NCBI GenBank assembly: GCA_028554645.1
Contig: JAQOOI010000058.1
Coordinates: 372,001-436,000, forward strand
DNA length: 64,000 nt
Source: Omphalotus guepiniiformis
Taxonomy: Eukaryota; Basidiomycota; Agaricomycetes; Agaricales; Omphalotaceae
Direction of reading: 5' to 3'
The translations under genes and the position numbers were made by a program. Positions 9,556-37,400 of this stretch are shown here, one piece after another. The notes beneath the pieces are model-generated. The model searched no databases and was not told the DNA's origin. It worked only from the letters and a program-made list of their open reading frames with translations. Numbering within the stretch: the first letter of the stretch is position 1; each line of letters begins with the position of its first letter.

Positions 9556-11876
9556 ATGGCTCGTCAATTCCTGAATGTCTTCGCTTATCTGGCGGCATTG
9601 AGCTCGGTTCACGCTTATTTCCTCGTCGGCGTCAGTAAGTTACTCGTTGAACGAAGTTATAAGATGGGAGGCTTGAATTCACTGCGAATTTGATAGATAA
9701 CATTCTTACGATTCAAAGACTGGATCCTATCGTCGATCCTGGTACACCGTCTGGTCATGTTCACACTGGTTCGTTGATTAATTCTTTGTGGGGTCACTTG
9801 GTTTATCGTGAATGTCTTTTTTTTCAGTCTTTGGAGGGAGCAACTTTGGTTCTGTTACGAATACTTCGAGCCTTAGGGATAGTGAATGTACTTCTATGCC
9901 CATCCAAGAGGACAAGTCCAACTATTGGTTCCCTGTGAGTTGCCACCTTCGAGTTCTTATCAAAAATGTTCCTGACCCAAACTCCTGTAGCACCTCTATT
10001 TCCAGTGCGTCCGGATCGGCAGTCTTGATTGTTACCGTTAATTGAGACCACTTTCTTCAGATGGGCAAATGGTTCCTTCACCTCTTTGACTGGCGGTGTT
10101 GTGGTGTAAGTTTTACCTATCTGTTATTTTGTTGCCGCACTAACCACACATTGTAGTTGTACGTCCACATTTTGAACGGATAACGAGTCTGCACTCATGA
10201 TGTGATACACAGACTACTTGTTTGATGATACGCCCGGCAGCACAAAGCCTTTCCCCGATGATGTGAGTCCAGGTACAGGCATACATGATCAACAAAACTG
10301 ATCTGAGCTTGATAGTTCCGCATGATCTCTGGTACGGTCTATATTCAAATGAGATGATTACTACATGTTCTAAACGTCGTGAAGGCGACCCCACTCTTAG
10401 GACGTATAATGCAAGCAGCTATGCTCAACAGGCTATCACTTTCTTGTGCTTGGACTTTGACGGAACCACCACCCACTTCAATGCGCTTCCTAATCAGGCT
10501 TGCCCTAGTGGTGTTCGTGCTCAGATCGTAAGCTTTTAATTTTCCATTGGACGTTCCGAACGTTGAAGAATATCTGCCTTTTAGAATTTCCCCATGTGCT
10601 GGGACGGAAAGGTAACGGGATATTGCTGCGCGGCCGGTGAATTGTCTTATGAATTGTTTTTTTAGAACACTGATTCCGCCGACCACAAGTCACACGTCGC
10701 TTTCCCCTCCGGTGGTCCAGACTCTGGCACTTGCAGTGACCCCAACTTCCCTGTGACTCTGCCGCGTGTTTTCATGGAGGTAGGTTCCCATACCCTTGTA
10801 CTATGTCAAGTTGCTAATGAGAAACTAGGTTTACTGGGACACCACCGACATGGACCCCCACAGAAGTGAAGCAATGAACACCACTCAGCCTTACGTGTGA
10901 GTATGTTGATAAGATACTACTACAGAGAGTTGACTTTGCTTTCTGTGTCTCGCAGTTACTCCTATGGAGACCGTACTGGGTATGGATATCACGCGGGTAA
11001 GACTCAATGAGTACCGTCTCTGATTCTAAAGCTCAATGGGTATTCATAGACTTCATCAACGGGTGGAAGAGCCAGGAATTTCTTCAGGACGTGCTTAATG
11101 GGTGTACCTGTGGTACGTGAATCTTCATACATACATACTATTACCATGTTGTTTAAAAGTTGTTTTCTCAGATCCATACGGAAGCACGGATTGCTGTGTC
11201 GCCAAAGGATTGTTCACCATCGACACCAAATCTCAATGCCGTATCACCGACTCACTCGACGAGCAGAGTAAGTCCTCTTCCGCCCTTCCGGATGACATAC
11301 ACCCTTTGTTGATGATACGTCTTCATTACAGCCACAGGAACCCTTGACAAGCTTCCGGGTAACAACCCTGTGCAAGAGGAAGGCAAGACGGCCGCTATGT
11401 TCCCTGACCCTGTTATTCCTGCGATTATTTCCCCGGTTTATGTGTACACTGGTACCTCACCTTCTGCGACCGGAATGGTTGTGACACCAGCTAGAACTGT
11501 TGATACCGGAGCCGTCGTTGTTGCCAGTGCTACAGTTTCCGTATCTATCCCCTCCGTTTCCGTATCTATCCCCTCCTCGAGCTCGGAATCTACGCCCGCT
11601 GGTCAGACACTAGTAGCTGTACCCTCTGCGTCAGCCGTTTCTACTGGTGCTAGTGCTGCTGCAAGCCCAACTCCAGGATCAGGATCAGGAAACAATTCTT
11701 CTGACACCGACTCTGATAGCTCTGAGCCCGATGATTCTGATTCGAGCTCTAATTCTTGTAGCTCGGAGAGGAAGAGGAAGCGTACTTCTGAACTTGGCAT
11801 GAAACGTCGTCGTGCTTTGCACAAAGCACGAGTTAATCATGATTCTCACAAGAGATTTACGCCCAATGCGTATTGA
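9556..11876 (+). CDS. secreted DUF1996-domain protein, 493 aa, 16 exons including three micro-exons
   Basis: Signal peptide in the first 20 residues (FLNVFAYLAALSSVHA), then a complete DUF1996 domain (function unknown; found in fungal secreted proteins): NNILTIQRLDPIVDPG, VHTVFGG, SNYWFPHLYFQWANGSFTS, FRMISGDP, ALPNQACPSGVRAQINFPMC, SHVAFPSGGPDSGTC, VYWDTTDMDP and DCC. Exons: 9556-9634, 9697-9768, 9828-9934, 9991-10004, 10061-10105, 10157-10158, 10213-10262, 10316-10331, 10385-10527, 10585-10611, 10666-10779, 10829-10896, 10956-10996, 11050-11112, 11172-11267, 11332-11876. They sum to 1482 nt, a multiple of three only if the 2-nt exon is included. The C-terminus is a Ser/Thr/Val-rich region, then an acidic SD-rich run and a basic tail (SSERKRKRTSELGMKRRR). 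No catalytic residues are known for the domain. Confidence 0.88.
10157..10158 (+). other. 2-nt micro-exon (TT) in the DUF1996 gene
   Basis: On the left is a 51-nt intron with a perfect GTAAGT donor (10106), a CTAAC branch-site match and a TAG acceptor (10156). On the right is a 54-nt intron with a GTACGT donor (10159) and a CAG acceptor (10212). Including TT gives GT-TT-AC, restoring the frame as VVVYYLFDDTPG, the conserved DUF1996 text. Skipping it leaves a single 107-nt intron and a frameshift. Confidence 0.7.
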
Positions 11877-31449: not shown

Positions 31450-34400
31450 TTAGATATTATTTTGAGGTTGTTATAAACATAAAATATTCTAGGAGGTCCA
31501 AGTTATAAATGTATTAAAACAAGATGTTAAATACAAGTAAAAAAAAAACACATTTTTTGTAAGAAACATGTAAATTTTTATACACTGGATGAAATTTAAC
31601 ACTAGGATTAATTTGCATTAGGAGCTAGGGGTCCTACTGCATAATGGGTGATCGCAGTATATCAAGATAACTGAGAGATTGTAATTTATACCACTAGAAT
31701 ACAATAAATATATGATGATAGAAACATTTAATTATCATAAAACTGTAAGTCACTAAGGTCTACTCCATAATCATCAAGCTCAAACTCCAAGTTCTTTCTT
31801 CTCTGAACATCATCTTGTAACATCTTTCTTGTAGCAGTAACCTTATCTTTATGCAGGCGTGTTTCTGGAAATGGATCTCGAAAAGCAATGCCATTCAATG
31901 ACTTCACTCTTGATATGGCCACAAAGGATAATCCTGATGCAAAGTCTTTTTCACCAAGAGAAATAGTGGCCTTATCTAGAGTAAGGCCTTGACTCTTGTG
32001 AATTGTAATAGCCCAAGACAAAGTCAAAGGTAGCTGTGTTCGGCTTAATTCAGTGTCACCTCTGGTATGCCATCTAGCTGTCATGGGAGCAATAGGAACC
32101 CAAGAAGGATCAATTCCCTCCCAACCAAGATTTGGAGGACCTATATCAAATCTGAGTATAAGTTTAGTAAGAGGATGTTCCAACCATACCTGAGTATCCC
32201 TCACATTCCACAAATACCACTGAAGGTAAATCCCCATGCTGAACATTGGCAGAAGGATCATACCAAATCTTCCTAATAAAACCTCTTGCTCCATTCACCA
32301 GCCCTATACATTTGATTATCAGAGAGCAAGTTTTAGGATATGAAGCATTAATCTTACCTTTAGAAGTCCATAAGTTCCTGGTAATCATTACTCTAGCCCC
32401 TTCAGCCAAGATAATCTCCTTTTCCAATCCTTCAGCATCCTCTTCTGAGGCTTTTCTGGCCTCAGAGCAGTTATGTTTTGCTTTACAACGGACCACTGGA
32501 CTACCACAATTGGCCAAACGTAAGAGATTGAGAGCTTTTACCTGCTCTCTCTGAGGTAGTAGATGGAGAGCATTGTCAAATTGAATGTGTTCTTCAGAAG
32601 ATAGTTGATCCCAGAAGCGAGTTCTGAACTTCTGATAATCACCAGCAGTGGACTCGTAATCTCGTAGACGAAGAAGCATATTCCTAAAAAGCTCTTGTTC
32701 TGGATCACCTCCAGCTTGACGGAATATCTGAGTTAGAGTAATAGACCTTGCAAATGCATGATATGCCTGAAACCCTTCTATTTTCAAAAGTGGTGGATGA
32801 CTCTCTGGCCTTTGATGACTAGTAGAGTAAAGAGGTGTTTCTCCAACTGGTGGCAGCTGAGCAAAATCTCCAAAAAGCAGAGTGGGAATATCAGCCAGAA
32901 CTTCATCATGACATTCAGGTCGGCCTTGACGAAGTCGTCTATCAACCTTACCAAACTGCTTCTGACCAATCATTGACTTTTCATCAATAATAAGCAGTTT
33001 GGCAGATTTCCATCGAGTTTGCACGCGCTTCATAGAGTTAGGTCCAAGCTGTTCAAACCCACTGCTGGGATCCTTGATTGGGATATTAAGACCATAGTTC
33101 AAAGTCCAACCCCGGATACCAAAAGCTGCAACTCCTGTAGGTGCTAGTCTAGCAACTGGATCACAACCTTCTCCAAGCTCATCAGCAAAGTGCTCTCTGA
33201 GTGCATGTGTGATGGCCCAGATTAAATAGGACTTTCCAGTGCCTGCAGTCCCATCCACATTGATTCTGAGAGTAGGTGGCTTGGCTTCAGGATTTTGTTT
33301 GATTTTTCTGAAATAAGCCATGACTTGGAGAAAGACTATTCTCTGAGATCCTTTTAGTGTCTGGTAGGGTGCCTCTGGTAGTAACTGTACATCATCATTG
33401 GGAGACTCCTTGACAGAGTCTGTAAGCCACTTTGCTGCAGTATTTGATACATTTCTTGAAGGAGAGTGCTGATGCCAGTCATACAATAGGTCCAAGTCTC
33501 TTCTTCCCAGAGTGTCCACATTGGTTTGAAGAATAGACTGGCCAGGAGCAAAAGCAGCTTCAAGCATCCATTGAAGCTGAACAGGTTCATGATCAGGGTC
33601 CTCATCAGGCACAGATTCTGAGTCTGAGTCTGAGTCTTCCTCCACTTCAGAGACTACAGTTGGTAGACTGTCAGTATGAGAGTGTTCATTATCCAAACAC
33701 AAATTAACATATGCTTCTGTATATGTGCTCCAACCCTGTAGAACCTCTTCAGGACTCTTTTCAAATGGATGATGAAGGACCAATCTTGCATAGCAGTACT
33801 TTTCATATAGATCTGGTGATGTGATATCTGGAGAATAGAGAGGCCAGACACTAACAACAAAAGGCAGTGCTCTTGAGCGTTTATGATAATGACCCTTCCA
33901 ATCCCACTTTGTGGCAAAGTCCAAGAGAGACACAGTCTTTAGTTCAGGGATAGTGTGAATTGGGCGATTTGTATAATGTTGAATGATGGACTTCCTCTCT
34001 ATAGTGGAATTTTCAAAGTCAAGAAAGGTGGTAGTGACACCTGGGATTACACAGATGCTGCGAACTTTGCGAGATGAAACTGTAAGAGGACACTGAAGAA
34101 GTATATGACAGGTTTCTTGAGCTGATATATCACGTTCTGCCACGAAGGTTGATAGCATCTTCTGAAACGCCACTCTAGCAGGAACTGTAGTGTCAAGGCG
34201 GGAAATAGCATTGTGTAGAATGCTTCTGTAGGTAGTAGAAGTGGTCTCAGCTTTACTTGCATACTTTGCAACATATGCAATGACAGCCTCTTTGTTGATA
34301 ACAGGGCGTATATCAATATTGGCCCGCCATCCCAGAATGAATGCAGGATTATAAGAGTTTAAGAGTGGATCATTTCTGCGTGTATGGAGTTCTGCAAAGT

Positions 34401-37400
34401 CGCGGCCAGGGTCCTTGACATACTCTGTCTTATCTCGCATTTTGTGAGGAAACCCAAACCGACAGAATGTTTCACTTGTTCCTTTTTTACGTCGCAGGCA
34501 ATAGCCAGCAGTACATTGACCATGTCTTTGAAAGCGATTTAGACACTGAGCTAGCTCTTGCTTAGTGTCCTGAAGTGTGTCAAATAGCATAGCAGATGGA
34601 TGAACAGCTGCAGGTGGACAAGTTTTGTCAGGATGCCAGGTGGAAATGTGCTCATCCCAGAAATCAATGAATGACTGCAACTGCTCGTTACTTGAAGTAT
34701 CCAATGTATCAATTGAAGGTGCATCATGTAACCATAGAAACCCATGCACATGACTACTGCCACGGTGCTGCCATTCATATCTCCACCACCAGTCCTTGAC
34801 TTTAAATTTGGGCTTCAAAAAGTGCTCGAAGTATATCTGCCACCGCTTTTGAAAGTAGTATGCAGCAATTGCAGGATTATTGTTCAAGTCCCGTAGTCGC
34901 ACACGATATGAGTGTGGGCCTTCAGGCTCTCCATGTGTATAGGATGGCATATGATGGTGCAAGTCTGGCCATTGGACATCTGCAGAAGAGGCCGTAATGA
35001 AGGCATGAGGTGAACCACATTCAGGAGACCGAATCTGTGCAAGAAGATCACTTCGTGCCTTTGACCAGTAAGGACGAGAACCTGGTAGTCTATTTGCAGC
35101 CTTTGAGACACGCTGAGCCAAGTCCTCAACTTCTCCTGTTTCAAACATTTCCTGGATATCAGCCACTGAGAGAGCTCCATCATCTTTATGGGTGGTAGTG
35201 TACCAGTTTGCTTCTTTACGTGCCTTATCACGCATAATTGTATTGAGAACCCAATATCTGAAGCGGGGATGACGAGCAAACCGACCTCCTTTGAGACGAA
35301 GTAGATGCGCAGCCCACTCAGTCATTTTGACTTTCTGAGAGCGATTAGCATTAAAGTCTGCCTGGCCTGTTGGAAAGAGAGTGGGAAATGCATCTATAGC
35401 TATTGGCAATCCATGATGCTCATTAAGAGGAGTTCCATGCACAACAGGCATAGTAAGCACAACAGGAGTATCATCATGAAACACAGCAGCTCTTAGCTGT
35501 TCCAGCTCGGTATTCCAGCCGGTAGTTGCTGGTACAAAGCCACGAGAATAGAGAGGAGTATCTTCTGATGCATCATGCTCATTTTCTTGAGGAGGGCCTT
35601 CCTCAGGAGGTTCCTCCATATCCTCTACTTCAATATTGTGTAGCCGTGAATAGACAGATTCATCCTCTGGTAACTGAGCCAAAGCATTTAAGTCAACTGT
35701 TACTTGACCAGATAGGAATGTGGGATGATTCTGCTGTAGATACTGCAACCATCTCTGTAGTGGAGCACGTCGCACACGAAAGTCCTGAGTAGCTGCCAAA
35801 TTATTGTTGGCTTCTGTACCCTTGCGCCTCATGATTATAACCTCACACGCTTCAGGCAATAGAGGCACCTTAGCATGGAAAGTGGTAGTGTCTTTGGGAA
35901 AGTTGCATGTATGTCCAGTGTATTTGTACTGTCCCCCTCGTACCTGCCATACCTGAACCAATGCATGCACTGGAGATATGAGCATTTCCTCCATCTGAGT
36001 TAACTCTGGCAAATCAGGTGAATCAGGTCCTGGATACATATGGTTCGATTCCTGGAATTTTGAACTTCGCCTACAGGTTGAGCAACGACCATCCCAATCA
36101 ACATCTAAGTCAAACCACTCCTCATGGCAGTGCACACAATGTTGCATATGGATGTCCATTACTTTCTGGCGAACAGTATTGAGCAAAACTTTATCTTCAG
36201 GTGAAACTGCAGATTGATCAAGAGTTGGCAGAGTGGGTTGGTGTGGAAGTGGATTTTCATTAGGTGCAGGTGTAGGCTGGCCATTAGGTGCAGGTATAGA
36301 CTGACCATTAGGAGCAGGCACAGGCTGAGAAGGTGGAAGTTGATTATTTGGATCAGGAGAACTCTGCTCCTGGACTGCAGCTCTCTGTCGCTCTCGCTGT
36401 TGTGCTCTTCGCCGTCGTGTGTTTTCATTGCAGCGAGCACATCGTTGTTTATCACCATAAATATCTTCAGGGACCCAATGTCTTCCTCCACAACAATATA
36501 GCATGTTAGGATGATCAGAGTCTGTATAACGTGCACTGTGATGCCTAATGTTGTGATCATGTGCATGACACGCATTGCATATGTCTAGTTCACCAAAGTG
36601 ATGTAAGAGAACCCAGTGATGTCTCCTTGCACACCACATTGAATTTGCATGCTGACTGTCAGTGTATCGTGCAGGGTGTTGAGGTACACGAACAACAGGA
36701 TGTGCATTGGATAAACGAGCTCCTGCAACTCTACGGGCAGGTGAATGTGACTGGGAAACTGATAGCTGAATGGGAGAGATATTGTCTGATGAGGGTAAAG
36801 GAGATGAGGACTGAGGTGGTGGAGAAGAATGTGACAAAGATTCATCAAAGATACCAGAATGCTGTGTTTGCTGTTGGGATATTTCCATTTGGAACAGACG
36901 GACACATGGAGAAGGGTTTGGACTATCCTCAAGTTGAAGATCATCCAGATCGTCTATTAACATTTGCGCTGGTAGGCCAGTATTTTTAGTTGGAGATTCA
37001 GGCATGTTACGCTGACGCAAGCGTCTAGGTGTATTTGGCTTCACAACTGGTTCTAATAATTCATTAGTCAACTCTCAGATCTGTTGTAACTGATTAACAG
37101 AACATACCATGATAATCAACATCAAAGATAGAGCCTACGGGCAGCTTCTGAATATGGCGAGAGGGTGGAGTAGCATGAACAGTAATCCGTGGTCGTTTAC
37201 AAAGAGTTTCTTGTGTGGCAGGTGTATGAGGAGTGCGATCCAATCGACGTGATCCATGATTTTGGAATGGTGTTGAAGGTAGTGGAGGTATTTCTGGAGT
37301 TGCATTGTGTAAAGGAGGAAAGTGGGGCGCTGGTATTGGTATTGAATCAGATATATAATAGTGATACATATTCATCACACTTACGTCCACCATGAGTAGT

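What the first reader, a model, noticed from the sequence alone, without database searches (positions are those of the whole stretch)
10106..10212. A 2-nucleotide exon in a DUF1996 gene
Two adjacent introns of 51 and 54 nt, each with excellent splice signals (GTAAGT...CTAAC...TAG and GTACGT...CAG), are separated by just TT. Only with these two bases does the frame run through the conserved VVVYYLFDDTPG, and only then is the total coding length a multiple of three. The other introns in the gene are also 50-62 nt. Exons of 14 and 16 nt occur in the same gene, so it may be a good model for micro-exon recognition in fungi. Gene predictors would almost surely miss it.
Basis: partly seen in the sequence, partly recalled or inferred. 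Interest (0 to 1): 0.82.

Follow-up and report, generated by a model that had tools for sequence, protein, structure and literature searches.

The report
Two-nucleotide exon in mushroom DUF1996 gene
A mushroom gene appears to contain an exon only two nucleotides long, its distant sister gene has one at the same place, and public gene models of other mushrooms often disagree at exactly this spot.

Summary
In a 16-exon DUF1996 gene (9556-11876, +) two ordinary U2-type introns, 10106-10156 (51 nt) and 10159-10212 (54 nt), flank a 2-nt exon, TT at 10157-10158. Of 217 splicing plans with no, one or two GT/GC-AG introns, 29 keep an open frame; the TT plan fits the conserved VVYYLF region best. The strongest new evidence is a paralog on another contig (189 of 299 residues identical). 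Modelled by hand, it has the same exon-length series and a 2-nt exon, AT, at the same codon position, between introns that do not align with the gene's. It lies in a clade spanning many Agaricales genera, so the exon most likely predates the duplication. Of 156 genome-derived homologous models that cover the site, 85 carry an indel there; of 34 transcript-like sequences none does. A stwintron is excluded by frame. A single AA-AG intron would give the same protein here, but the matching idea in the paralog gives Met where 27 of 34 transcript-like relatives have Ile. No cDNA and no DNA of other fungi could be read. A new member of a known kind, the ultra-small exons, apparently old and often misannotated.

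The parts
9556..11876 (+). DUF1996 gene, 16 exons, 493 codons plus stop
   Evidence: gene model; Pfam PF09362, E 8.4e-78, residues 36-265, profile 1-237 of 237
10061..10105 (+). exon 5 (45 nt), ends GTGGT, leaving GT at codon positions 1-2
   Evidence: paralog exon also 45 nt
10106..10156 (+). intron 5, 51 nt, GTAAGT ... CTAAC ... TAG, phase 2
   Evidence: score 21.7, above 23 of 23 training introns
10157..10158 (+). exon 6, TT: third base of a Val codon and first base of a Tyr codon
   Evidence: same position and length in the paralog
10159..10212 (+). intron 6, 54 nt, GTACGT ... CTCAT ... CAG, phase 1
   Evidence: score 14.9, above 8 of 23 training introns
10213..10262 (+). exon 7 (50 nt), begins AC TAC TTG TTT (Tyr Tyr Leu Phe with the T of exon 6)
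   Evidence: paralog exon also 50 nt
9991..10004 (+). 14-nt exon 4, also 14 nt in the paralog
10316..10331 (+). 16-nt exon 8, also 16 nt in the paralog

Best explanation
The gene has a constitutive 2-nt coding exon (TT, 10157-10158) between two ordinary short U2-type introns. Each intron is probably recognised across itself (intron definition, usual for short fungal introns; recalled) and they are removed one after the other, because U1 on the second donor and the 3' splice-site factors on the first acceptor would overlap when only 2 nt apart (recalled footprints). Whichever intron goes first, the other keeps a complete donor, branch site and acceptor, so no factor has to recognise the 2-nt exon; it is first joined to one neighbour and is then simply part of a normal exon edge. 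Its second base must be T because it starts the conserved Tyr codon. Skipping it shifts the frame. The arrangement is old: it most likely predates the split between the two DUF1996 paralogs of this genome. Shown here: sequence, frame, splice signals, identity of position in the paralog, indel hot spot in models of other species. Inferred: order and mechanism of splicing, presence of TT in the mature mRNA of this species, presence of a 2-nt exon in each other genus.
For: Frame and protein. Enumeration of no, one or two GT/GC-AG introns of 30 nt or more, scored against 12 transcript-like relatives: gene 217 plans, 29 open, TT plan 124, next 102; paralog 571 plans, 75 open, 2-nt plan 115, next 103. 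Paralog with a 2-nt exon AT at the same place, introns 47 and 59 nt, same exon-length series but for 146 against 143 nt; 189 of 299 residues identical, the two introns align no better than shuffles. Splice scores and shuffles. Homologs: indel within 4 residues of the junction in 0 of 34 transcript-like proteins against 42 of 89 and 43 of 67 genome-derived models (Fisher p 1.3e-10, rows not independent). In the gene's clade the other intron sites have 0 to 8 of 88-89, except intron 14 with 21 of 89. Of 71 models classed as non-canonical by pattern, 14 begin M-x-V, the reading of AT|GTNNGT into the first intron, and 10 begin I-C, the reading of a 2-nt exon ending in T and then GT. All 34 transcript-like sequences read xYYL. 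The paralog's clade, 24 rows with SH-aLRT 98, holds Fistulina, Moniliophthora, Schizophyllum, Lentinula, Armillaria, Mycena, Crucibulum, Hypsizygus, Coprinopsis and Macrolepiota; the gene lies outside it.
Against: No cDNA or RNA-seq of this organism. No genomic DNA of another fungus could be read, so conservation outside this genome rests on proteins and model errors. Signals of this strength occur by chance about once more in the window, and over all spacings of 0-8 nt the window is no richer than reversed controls (5 against 7). An AA-AG single intron gives the same protein in this gene. 71 of 156 genome-derived models have no indel at the site: correct models, shifted donors, or no twin intron there. 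Only 24 of the 71 non-canonical models show a donor read-through; 47 do not. In the paralog's clade the sites around the 14- and 16-nt exons also have indels in 15 to 19 of 67-69 models, so part of the errors there is general. Intron 6 has only a moderate score.
Confidence: 0.92

Rival explanations
1. One 105-nt intron with a non-canonical AA-AG donor (10108-10212): exon 5 ends GTGGTGT and joins AC TAC directly, giving the same protein.
For: Scores equal to the TT plan in the gene (124).
Against: Ignores GTAAGT, CTAAC and TAG of the first intron and the second donor. In the paralog the matching single intron would start TCGGAT and give VMYYLF (112 against 115), whereas of 34 transcript-like relatives 27 have Ile there and 1 Met. 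The donor dinucleotides would differ between the copies (AA, TC).
Confidence: 0.04
2. A stwintron (nested introns): an internal intron splits the donor or acceptor of an external one and the whole 107 nt leave in two steps.
For: Two adjacent intron-sized units with almost nothing between them; stwintrons are described in fungi (listing, passages).
Against: Removing all 107 nt (108 in the paralog) breaks the frame. An external intron that ends at the observed AG and keeps the spacing of the protein would start with A in the gene and T in the paralog, not with G. Nested plans were reasoned, not enumerated apart.
Confidence: 0.01
3. Assembly error or pseudogene: a 2-nt deletion in an ordinary gene.
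For: One assembly only, no reads seen.
Against: The frame is otherwise open over 16 exons; the paralog shows the same arrangement with different bases; the site is an indel hot spot in models of many other species.
Confidence: 0.01
4. The exon is real but its inclusion is regulated: skipped or partly spliced forms shift the frame and lower the protein level.
For: Skipping gives early stops; the weaker intron differs between the copies (gene: second; paralog: first).
Against: No isoform data; 34 of 34 transcript-like sequences carry the full form, though assemblies favour the major form.
Confidence: 0.12

Closest known systems
Single-nucleotide exon of Arabidopsis APC11 (PMC4674806, part 1 of 3 of the text read)
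   Same: Constitutive ultra-small coding exon between two introns, needed for the frame, missed by annotation; when the base was replaced by TT the exon was still spliced correctly in Arabidopsis protoplasts (not in rice)
   Different: 1 nt in a plant, within a 422-nt interval, shown by cDNA and reporter constructs; here 2 nt, short fungal introns, not yet shown by cDNA
Single-nucleotide exon of Fusarium CYP621A (PMC12940212, parts 1 and 2 of 3 of the text read)
   Same: Fungal gene, exon forced by frame in a conserved motif, database models wrong there in all but one case, kept among orthologs
   Different: 1 nt, one P450 subfamily in Fusarium, SRA reads available; here 2 nt in Agaricales, in two paralogs, no reads
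Conserved 1-nt microexons of APC11 and VPS55 in land plants (PMC8831610, passages read)
   Same: Deep conservation and misannotation
   Different: Plants, 1 nt, RNA-seq and RT-PCR support
Stwintrons (PMC5639578 passages read; others seen in the listing only)
   Same: Two adjacent short U2 introns, removal in consecutive steps
   Different: A stwintron leaves no base between its introns and has an interrupted splice element; here both introns are complete and two bases stay
Microexons in Phanerochaete P450 genes (PMC1184071, passages read)
   Same: Very short exons with frequent 45-55 bp introns in a basidiomycete
   Different: Shortest exon there 6 bp

Membership tests
ultra-small (1-3 nt) coding exon | flanked on both sides by introns with canonical splice sites and branch signals | tested here: met
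ultra-small (1-3 nt) coding exon | needed for the reading frame of a conserved protein | tested here: met
   (for GT/GC-AG introns)
ultra-small (1-3 nt) coding exon | kept in related genes at the same codon position | tested here: met
   one paralog; other species only indirectly
ultra-small (1-3 nt) coding exon | present in the mature mRNA of this organism | not testable with these tools
   no RNA data of this organism; 34 of 34 transcript-like relatives keep the frame
stwintron | an internal intron interrupts a donor, branch or acceptor element of an external intron | tested here: not met
   both introns have complete elements
stwintron | two-step removal leaves no base and keeps the frame | tested here: not met
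   removal of all 107 or 108 nt breaks the frame; no frame-keeping start with G at the observed acceptor
DUF1996 (PF09362) protein | Pfam match above the curated cut-off over the whole profile | tested here: met
   262.1 bits against 27, profile 1-237 of 237

The most novel reading that the evidence does not exclude
A natural constitutive 2-nt exon has been kept at one codon position in two paralogous DUF1996 lineages since before the diversification of much of the Agaricales. It is spliced by obligate sequential removal of two complete introns, and it makes over half of the sampled public gene models of this family wrong at that spot. It would be the first conserved 2-nt exon described in fungi, as far as my searches of open-licence papers show.
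Probability: 0.7. Interest if true: 0.7.

Novelty: new member of a known kind. Interest (0 to 1): 0.62.

Why it matters
Exons of 1 nt are published for plants and, since 2026, for one fungal P450 subfamily, so the limit of exon size is not moved. What would be new is breadth: the same 2-nt exon in two old paralogs, with a trail of disagreeing gene models in many mushroom genera. If the orthologs bear it out, that gives many natural variants of splice sites around a 2-nt exon, in genera that include transformable ones such as Coprinopsis and Schizophyllum (recalled), and makes the order of removal and the steric limits of neighbouring splice sites testable. It also suggests a simple scan: conserved places where gene models of a whole order disagree while transcripts agree.

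Tried and rejected
Rejected: stwintron (frame); single GT/GC-AG intron (best in-frame product TGDYLF scores 90 against 124); other exon lengths between two introns (next best has a 6-nt exon, 102); the second 2-nt candidate in the window, 36972-37078, which lies in a Helitron-like ORF.

Led nowhere: scans of genome contigs (bacteria and archaea) and viral contigs with the gene's protein gave no relative, so no orthologous genomic sequence could be read; the pattern search was not informative. A search for '2-nt exon' and four variants found one paper, on HLA-F, seen in the listing only. Searches with microexon, micro-exons, single-nucleotide exon, smallest exon or tiny exons, some with fungal or basidiomycete terms, showed no 2-nt exon in Agaricales in their listings. 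This does not show that none is in print: only open-licence papers are held, and PMC12940212 itself cites work reporting exons of 2-5 bp in Arabidopsis, Drosophila and human.

Limits of the counts: 'transcript-like' is inferred from source label (lgn, jgi, ena) and contig length; 34 proteins, of which 25 leave under 600 and 30 under 750 non-coding nt while the gene's 15 introns total 839 nt; 4 leave more. Of 571, 878 and 411 homologs found the best 120 each were listed, 197 different proteins. Four rows (P0185, P0189, P0190, P0192) were dropped as non-Agaricales or of unclear source; of the remaining 159 genome-derived rows 3 did not cover the junction. In one search, 29 of 159 had no anchor; of the other 130, 59 were canonical and 71 not (14 M-x-V, 10 I-C, 15 other M, 3 IDYL, 29 other). 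Some genera give many rows, so counts are not independent. In one search the column with most indels was not this junction but residues 264-268 (94 of 94), where the window gene itself seems to differ. The tree (quick method, SH-aLRT only) used 64 of the 197 proteins, chosen by me, plus the two own copies; 22 of 63 inner branches are open and two rows that I take for non-Agaricales (Sistotremastrum, Sphaerobolus) fall among the Agaricales, so deep order is unresolved. The paralog was modelled by hand on the pattern of the gene, without its first exon.

Full report
What is there. The window comes from an assembly of 42.5 Mb in 80 contigs. At 9556-11876 (+) lies a gene of 16 exons, 1482 nt of coding sequence, 493 codons, with a full-length DUF1996 match. 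Its listed relatives are mostly agaric mushrooms; in a tree of 66 rows the nearest is Stygiomarasmius, 75% identical over 295 columns. Introns 5 and 6 are 10106-10156 and 10159-10212; between them are the two bases TT. With TT the protein reads TGGVVVYYLFDDTPG; without TT it shifts frame and runs into stops. The other introns are 49-64 nt.

Is it more than chance? I scored donors, acceptors and branch sites against 23 other introns of the gene and its paralog (branch weights recalled, not trained). Intron 5 scores above all 23, intron 6 above 8 of 23. With the outer sites held fixed, an equally good 2-nt split appeared in 8 of 20,000 shuffles, and a split with any in-frame exon of 2-17 nt in 38. 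A scan of both strands of the window at a threshold of 14.8 gave one other 2-nt pair, in a Helitron-like ORF, and none in two reversed controls; over all spacings of 0-8 nt the window gave 5 pairs and the controls 7. So the signals are good but would not suffice alone. The frame adds to them: of 217 plans with no, one or two GT/GC-AG introns of at least 30 nt, 29 are open, and the TT plan is the best match to 12 transcript-like relatives, 124 against 102 for the runner-up.

The paralog. A second DUF1996 gene lies on contig C47, minus strand. Modelled by hand from exon 2 on, its exon lengths are 72, 107, 14, 45, 2, 50, 16, 146, 27, 114, 68, 41; those of the gene are 72, 107, 14, 45, 2, 50, 16, 143, 27, 114, 68, 41. 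Its 2-nt exon is AT (C47:145264-145263), between introns of 47 and 59 nt, and gives AVIYYLF; without it the frame breaks. In its 108-nt interval 0 of 20,000 shuffles matched the observed score, and of 571 plans, 75 open, the 2-nt plan is best, 115 against 103. The proteins are 189 of 299 identical and the two introns align no better than shuffles, so this is not a recent copy. The paralog sits in a clade of 24 rows (SH-aLRT 98) with Fistulina, Moniliophthora, Schizophyllum, Lentinula, Armillaria, Mycena, Crucibulum, Hypsizygus, Coprinopsis and Macrolepiota; the gene sits outside it. Deep forks of that tree are unresolved, but the 2-nt exon most likely predates the duplication.

Other species. 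No DNA of other fungi could be reached, but 197 homologous proteins could. I sorted them into 34 transcript-like ones (short contigs; an inference) and 159 genome-derived models, leaving out four. At the twin-intron site 0 of 34 transcript-like proteins have an indel, against 42 of 89 and 43 of 67 models in the two clades (p 1.3e-10, rows not independent). In the gene's clade the other introns have 0 to 8 of 88-89, except intron 14 with 21 of 89. In the paralog's clade the sites around the 14- and 16-nt exons also suffer (15 to 19 of 67-69) and intron 12 has 11 of 70, all less than this site. A first profile had its maximum elsewhere, at residues 264-268, where all 94 genome-derived rows differ from the window gene, probably a feature of the gene itself. 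Of 71 models classed as non-canonical by pattern, 14 continue M-x-V, which is AT followed by a GTNNGT donor, and 10 continue I-C, which is a 2-nt exon ending in T followed by GT; 47 show neither. All 34 transcript-like sequences read xYYL, with Ile 27, Val 4, Ala 2, Met 1. Among 59 normal-looking models Met is commoner, 15 of 59 (p 0.005), as expected if some were rescued by taking GT from the first donor; this is an inference. Genera with an affected model include Laccaria, Lyophyllum, Termitomyces, Pleurotus, Tricholoma, Amanita, Galerina, Mycena, Lentinula, Desarmillaria, Fistulina and Moniliophthora.

How it probably works. Both introns have complete splice sites, and these stay complete whichever intron goes first. 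Two bases leave no room for factors on the first acceptor and U1 on the second donor at once (recalled footprints), so removal should be sequential; after the first step the 2-nt exon is part of a normal exon end. In the gene the first intron is the stronger, in the paralog the second, so the order need not be conserved. These steps are inferred from the anatomy.

Rivals. A stwintron is ruled out by frame: removing all bases breaks it, and an external intron that ends at the observed acceptor and keeps the spacing would start with A or T. A single AA-AG intron would give the same protein in the gene, but the same idea in the paralog needs a TC donor and gives Met where most transcript-like relatives have Ile. 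An assembly error would have to have struck both copies and to mimic a problem seen in models of many genera.

What is known. One-nucleotide exons are published for Arabidopsis APC11 (PMC4674806, part 1 of 3 read), for APC11 and VPS55 across land plants (PMC8831610, passages) and for CYP621A of Fusarium (PMC12940212, parts 1 and 2 of 3 read), which calls itself the first in a fungal gene and cites exons of 2-5 bp in Arabidopsis, Drosophila and human. Phanerochaete P450 genes have exons down to 6 bp (PMC1184071, passages). DUF1996 proteins of Beauveria bassiana are vacuolar and affect stress tolerance (PMC4738358, abstract and outline). My searches found no 2-nt exon in Agaricales (listings, open-licence papers only). 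Verdict: a well-supported 2-nt exon, new member of a known kind, of interest for its apparent age and spread; cDNA is the missing proof.

Noticed in passing
window 32164-37074 (-): A 1636-aa open frame with Helitron_like_N, DUF6570, PIF1 and AAA matches: a Helitron-type Rep/helicase.
   Followed up: partly
window 11113-11171 (intron 14 of the gene): Second hot spot of indels in genome-derived models of the gene's clade, 21 of 89, against 1 of 26 transcript-like ones; cause unknown.
   Followed up: no
window 9991-10004 and 10316-10331: The 14- and 16-nt exons are also kept in the paralog, and models of the paralog's clade often have indels around them (15 to 19 of 67-69).
   Followed up: partly
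homologs P0007, P0019, P0036, P0069 and others: 15 of 59 normal-looking genome models have Met at the split codon against 1 of 34 transcript-like ones, perhaps models that took GT of the first donor as exon.
   Followed up: partly
window about 11061-11075 (residues 264-268 of the gene's protein): In the alignments all 94 genome-derived rows differ from the gene by an indel here; perhaps a small lineage-specific change in the gene. Transcript-like rows were not tabulated there.
   Followed up: no
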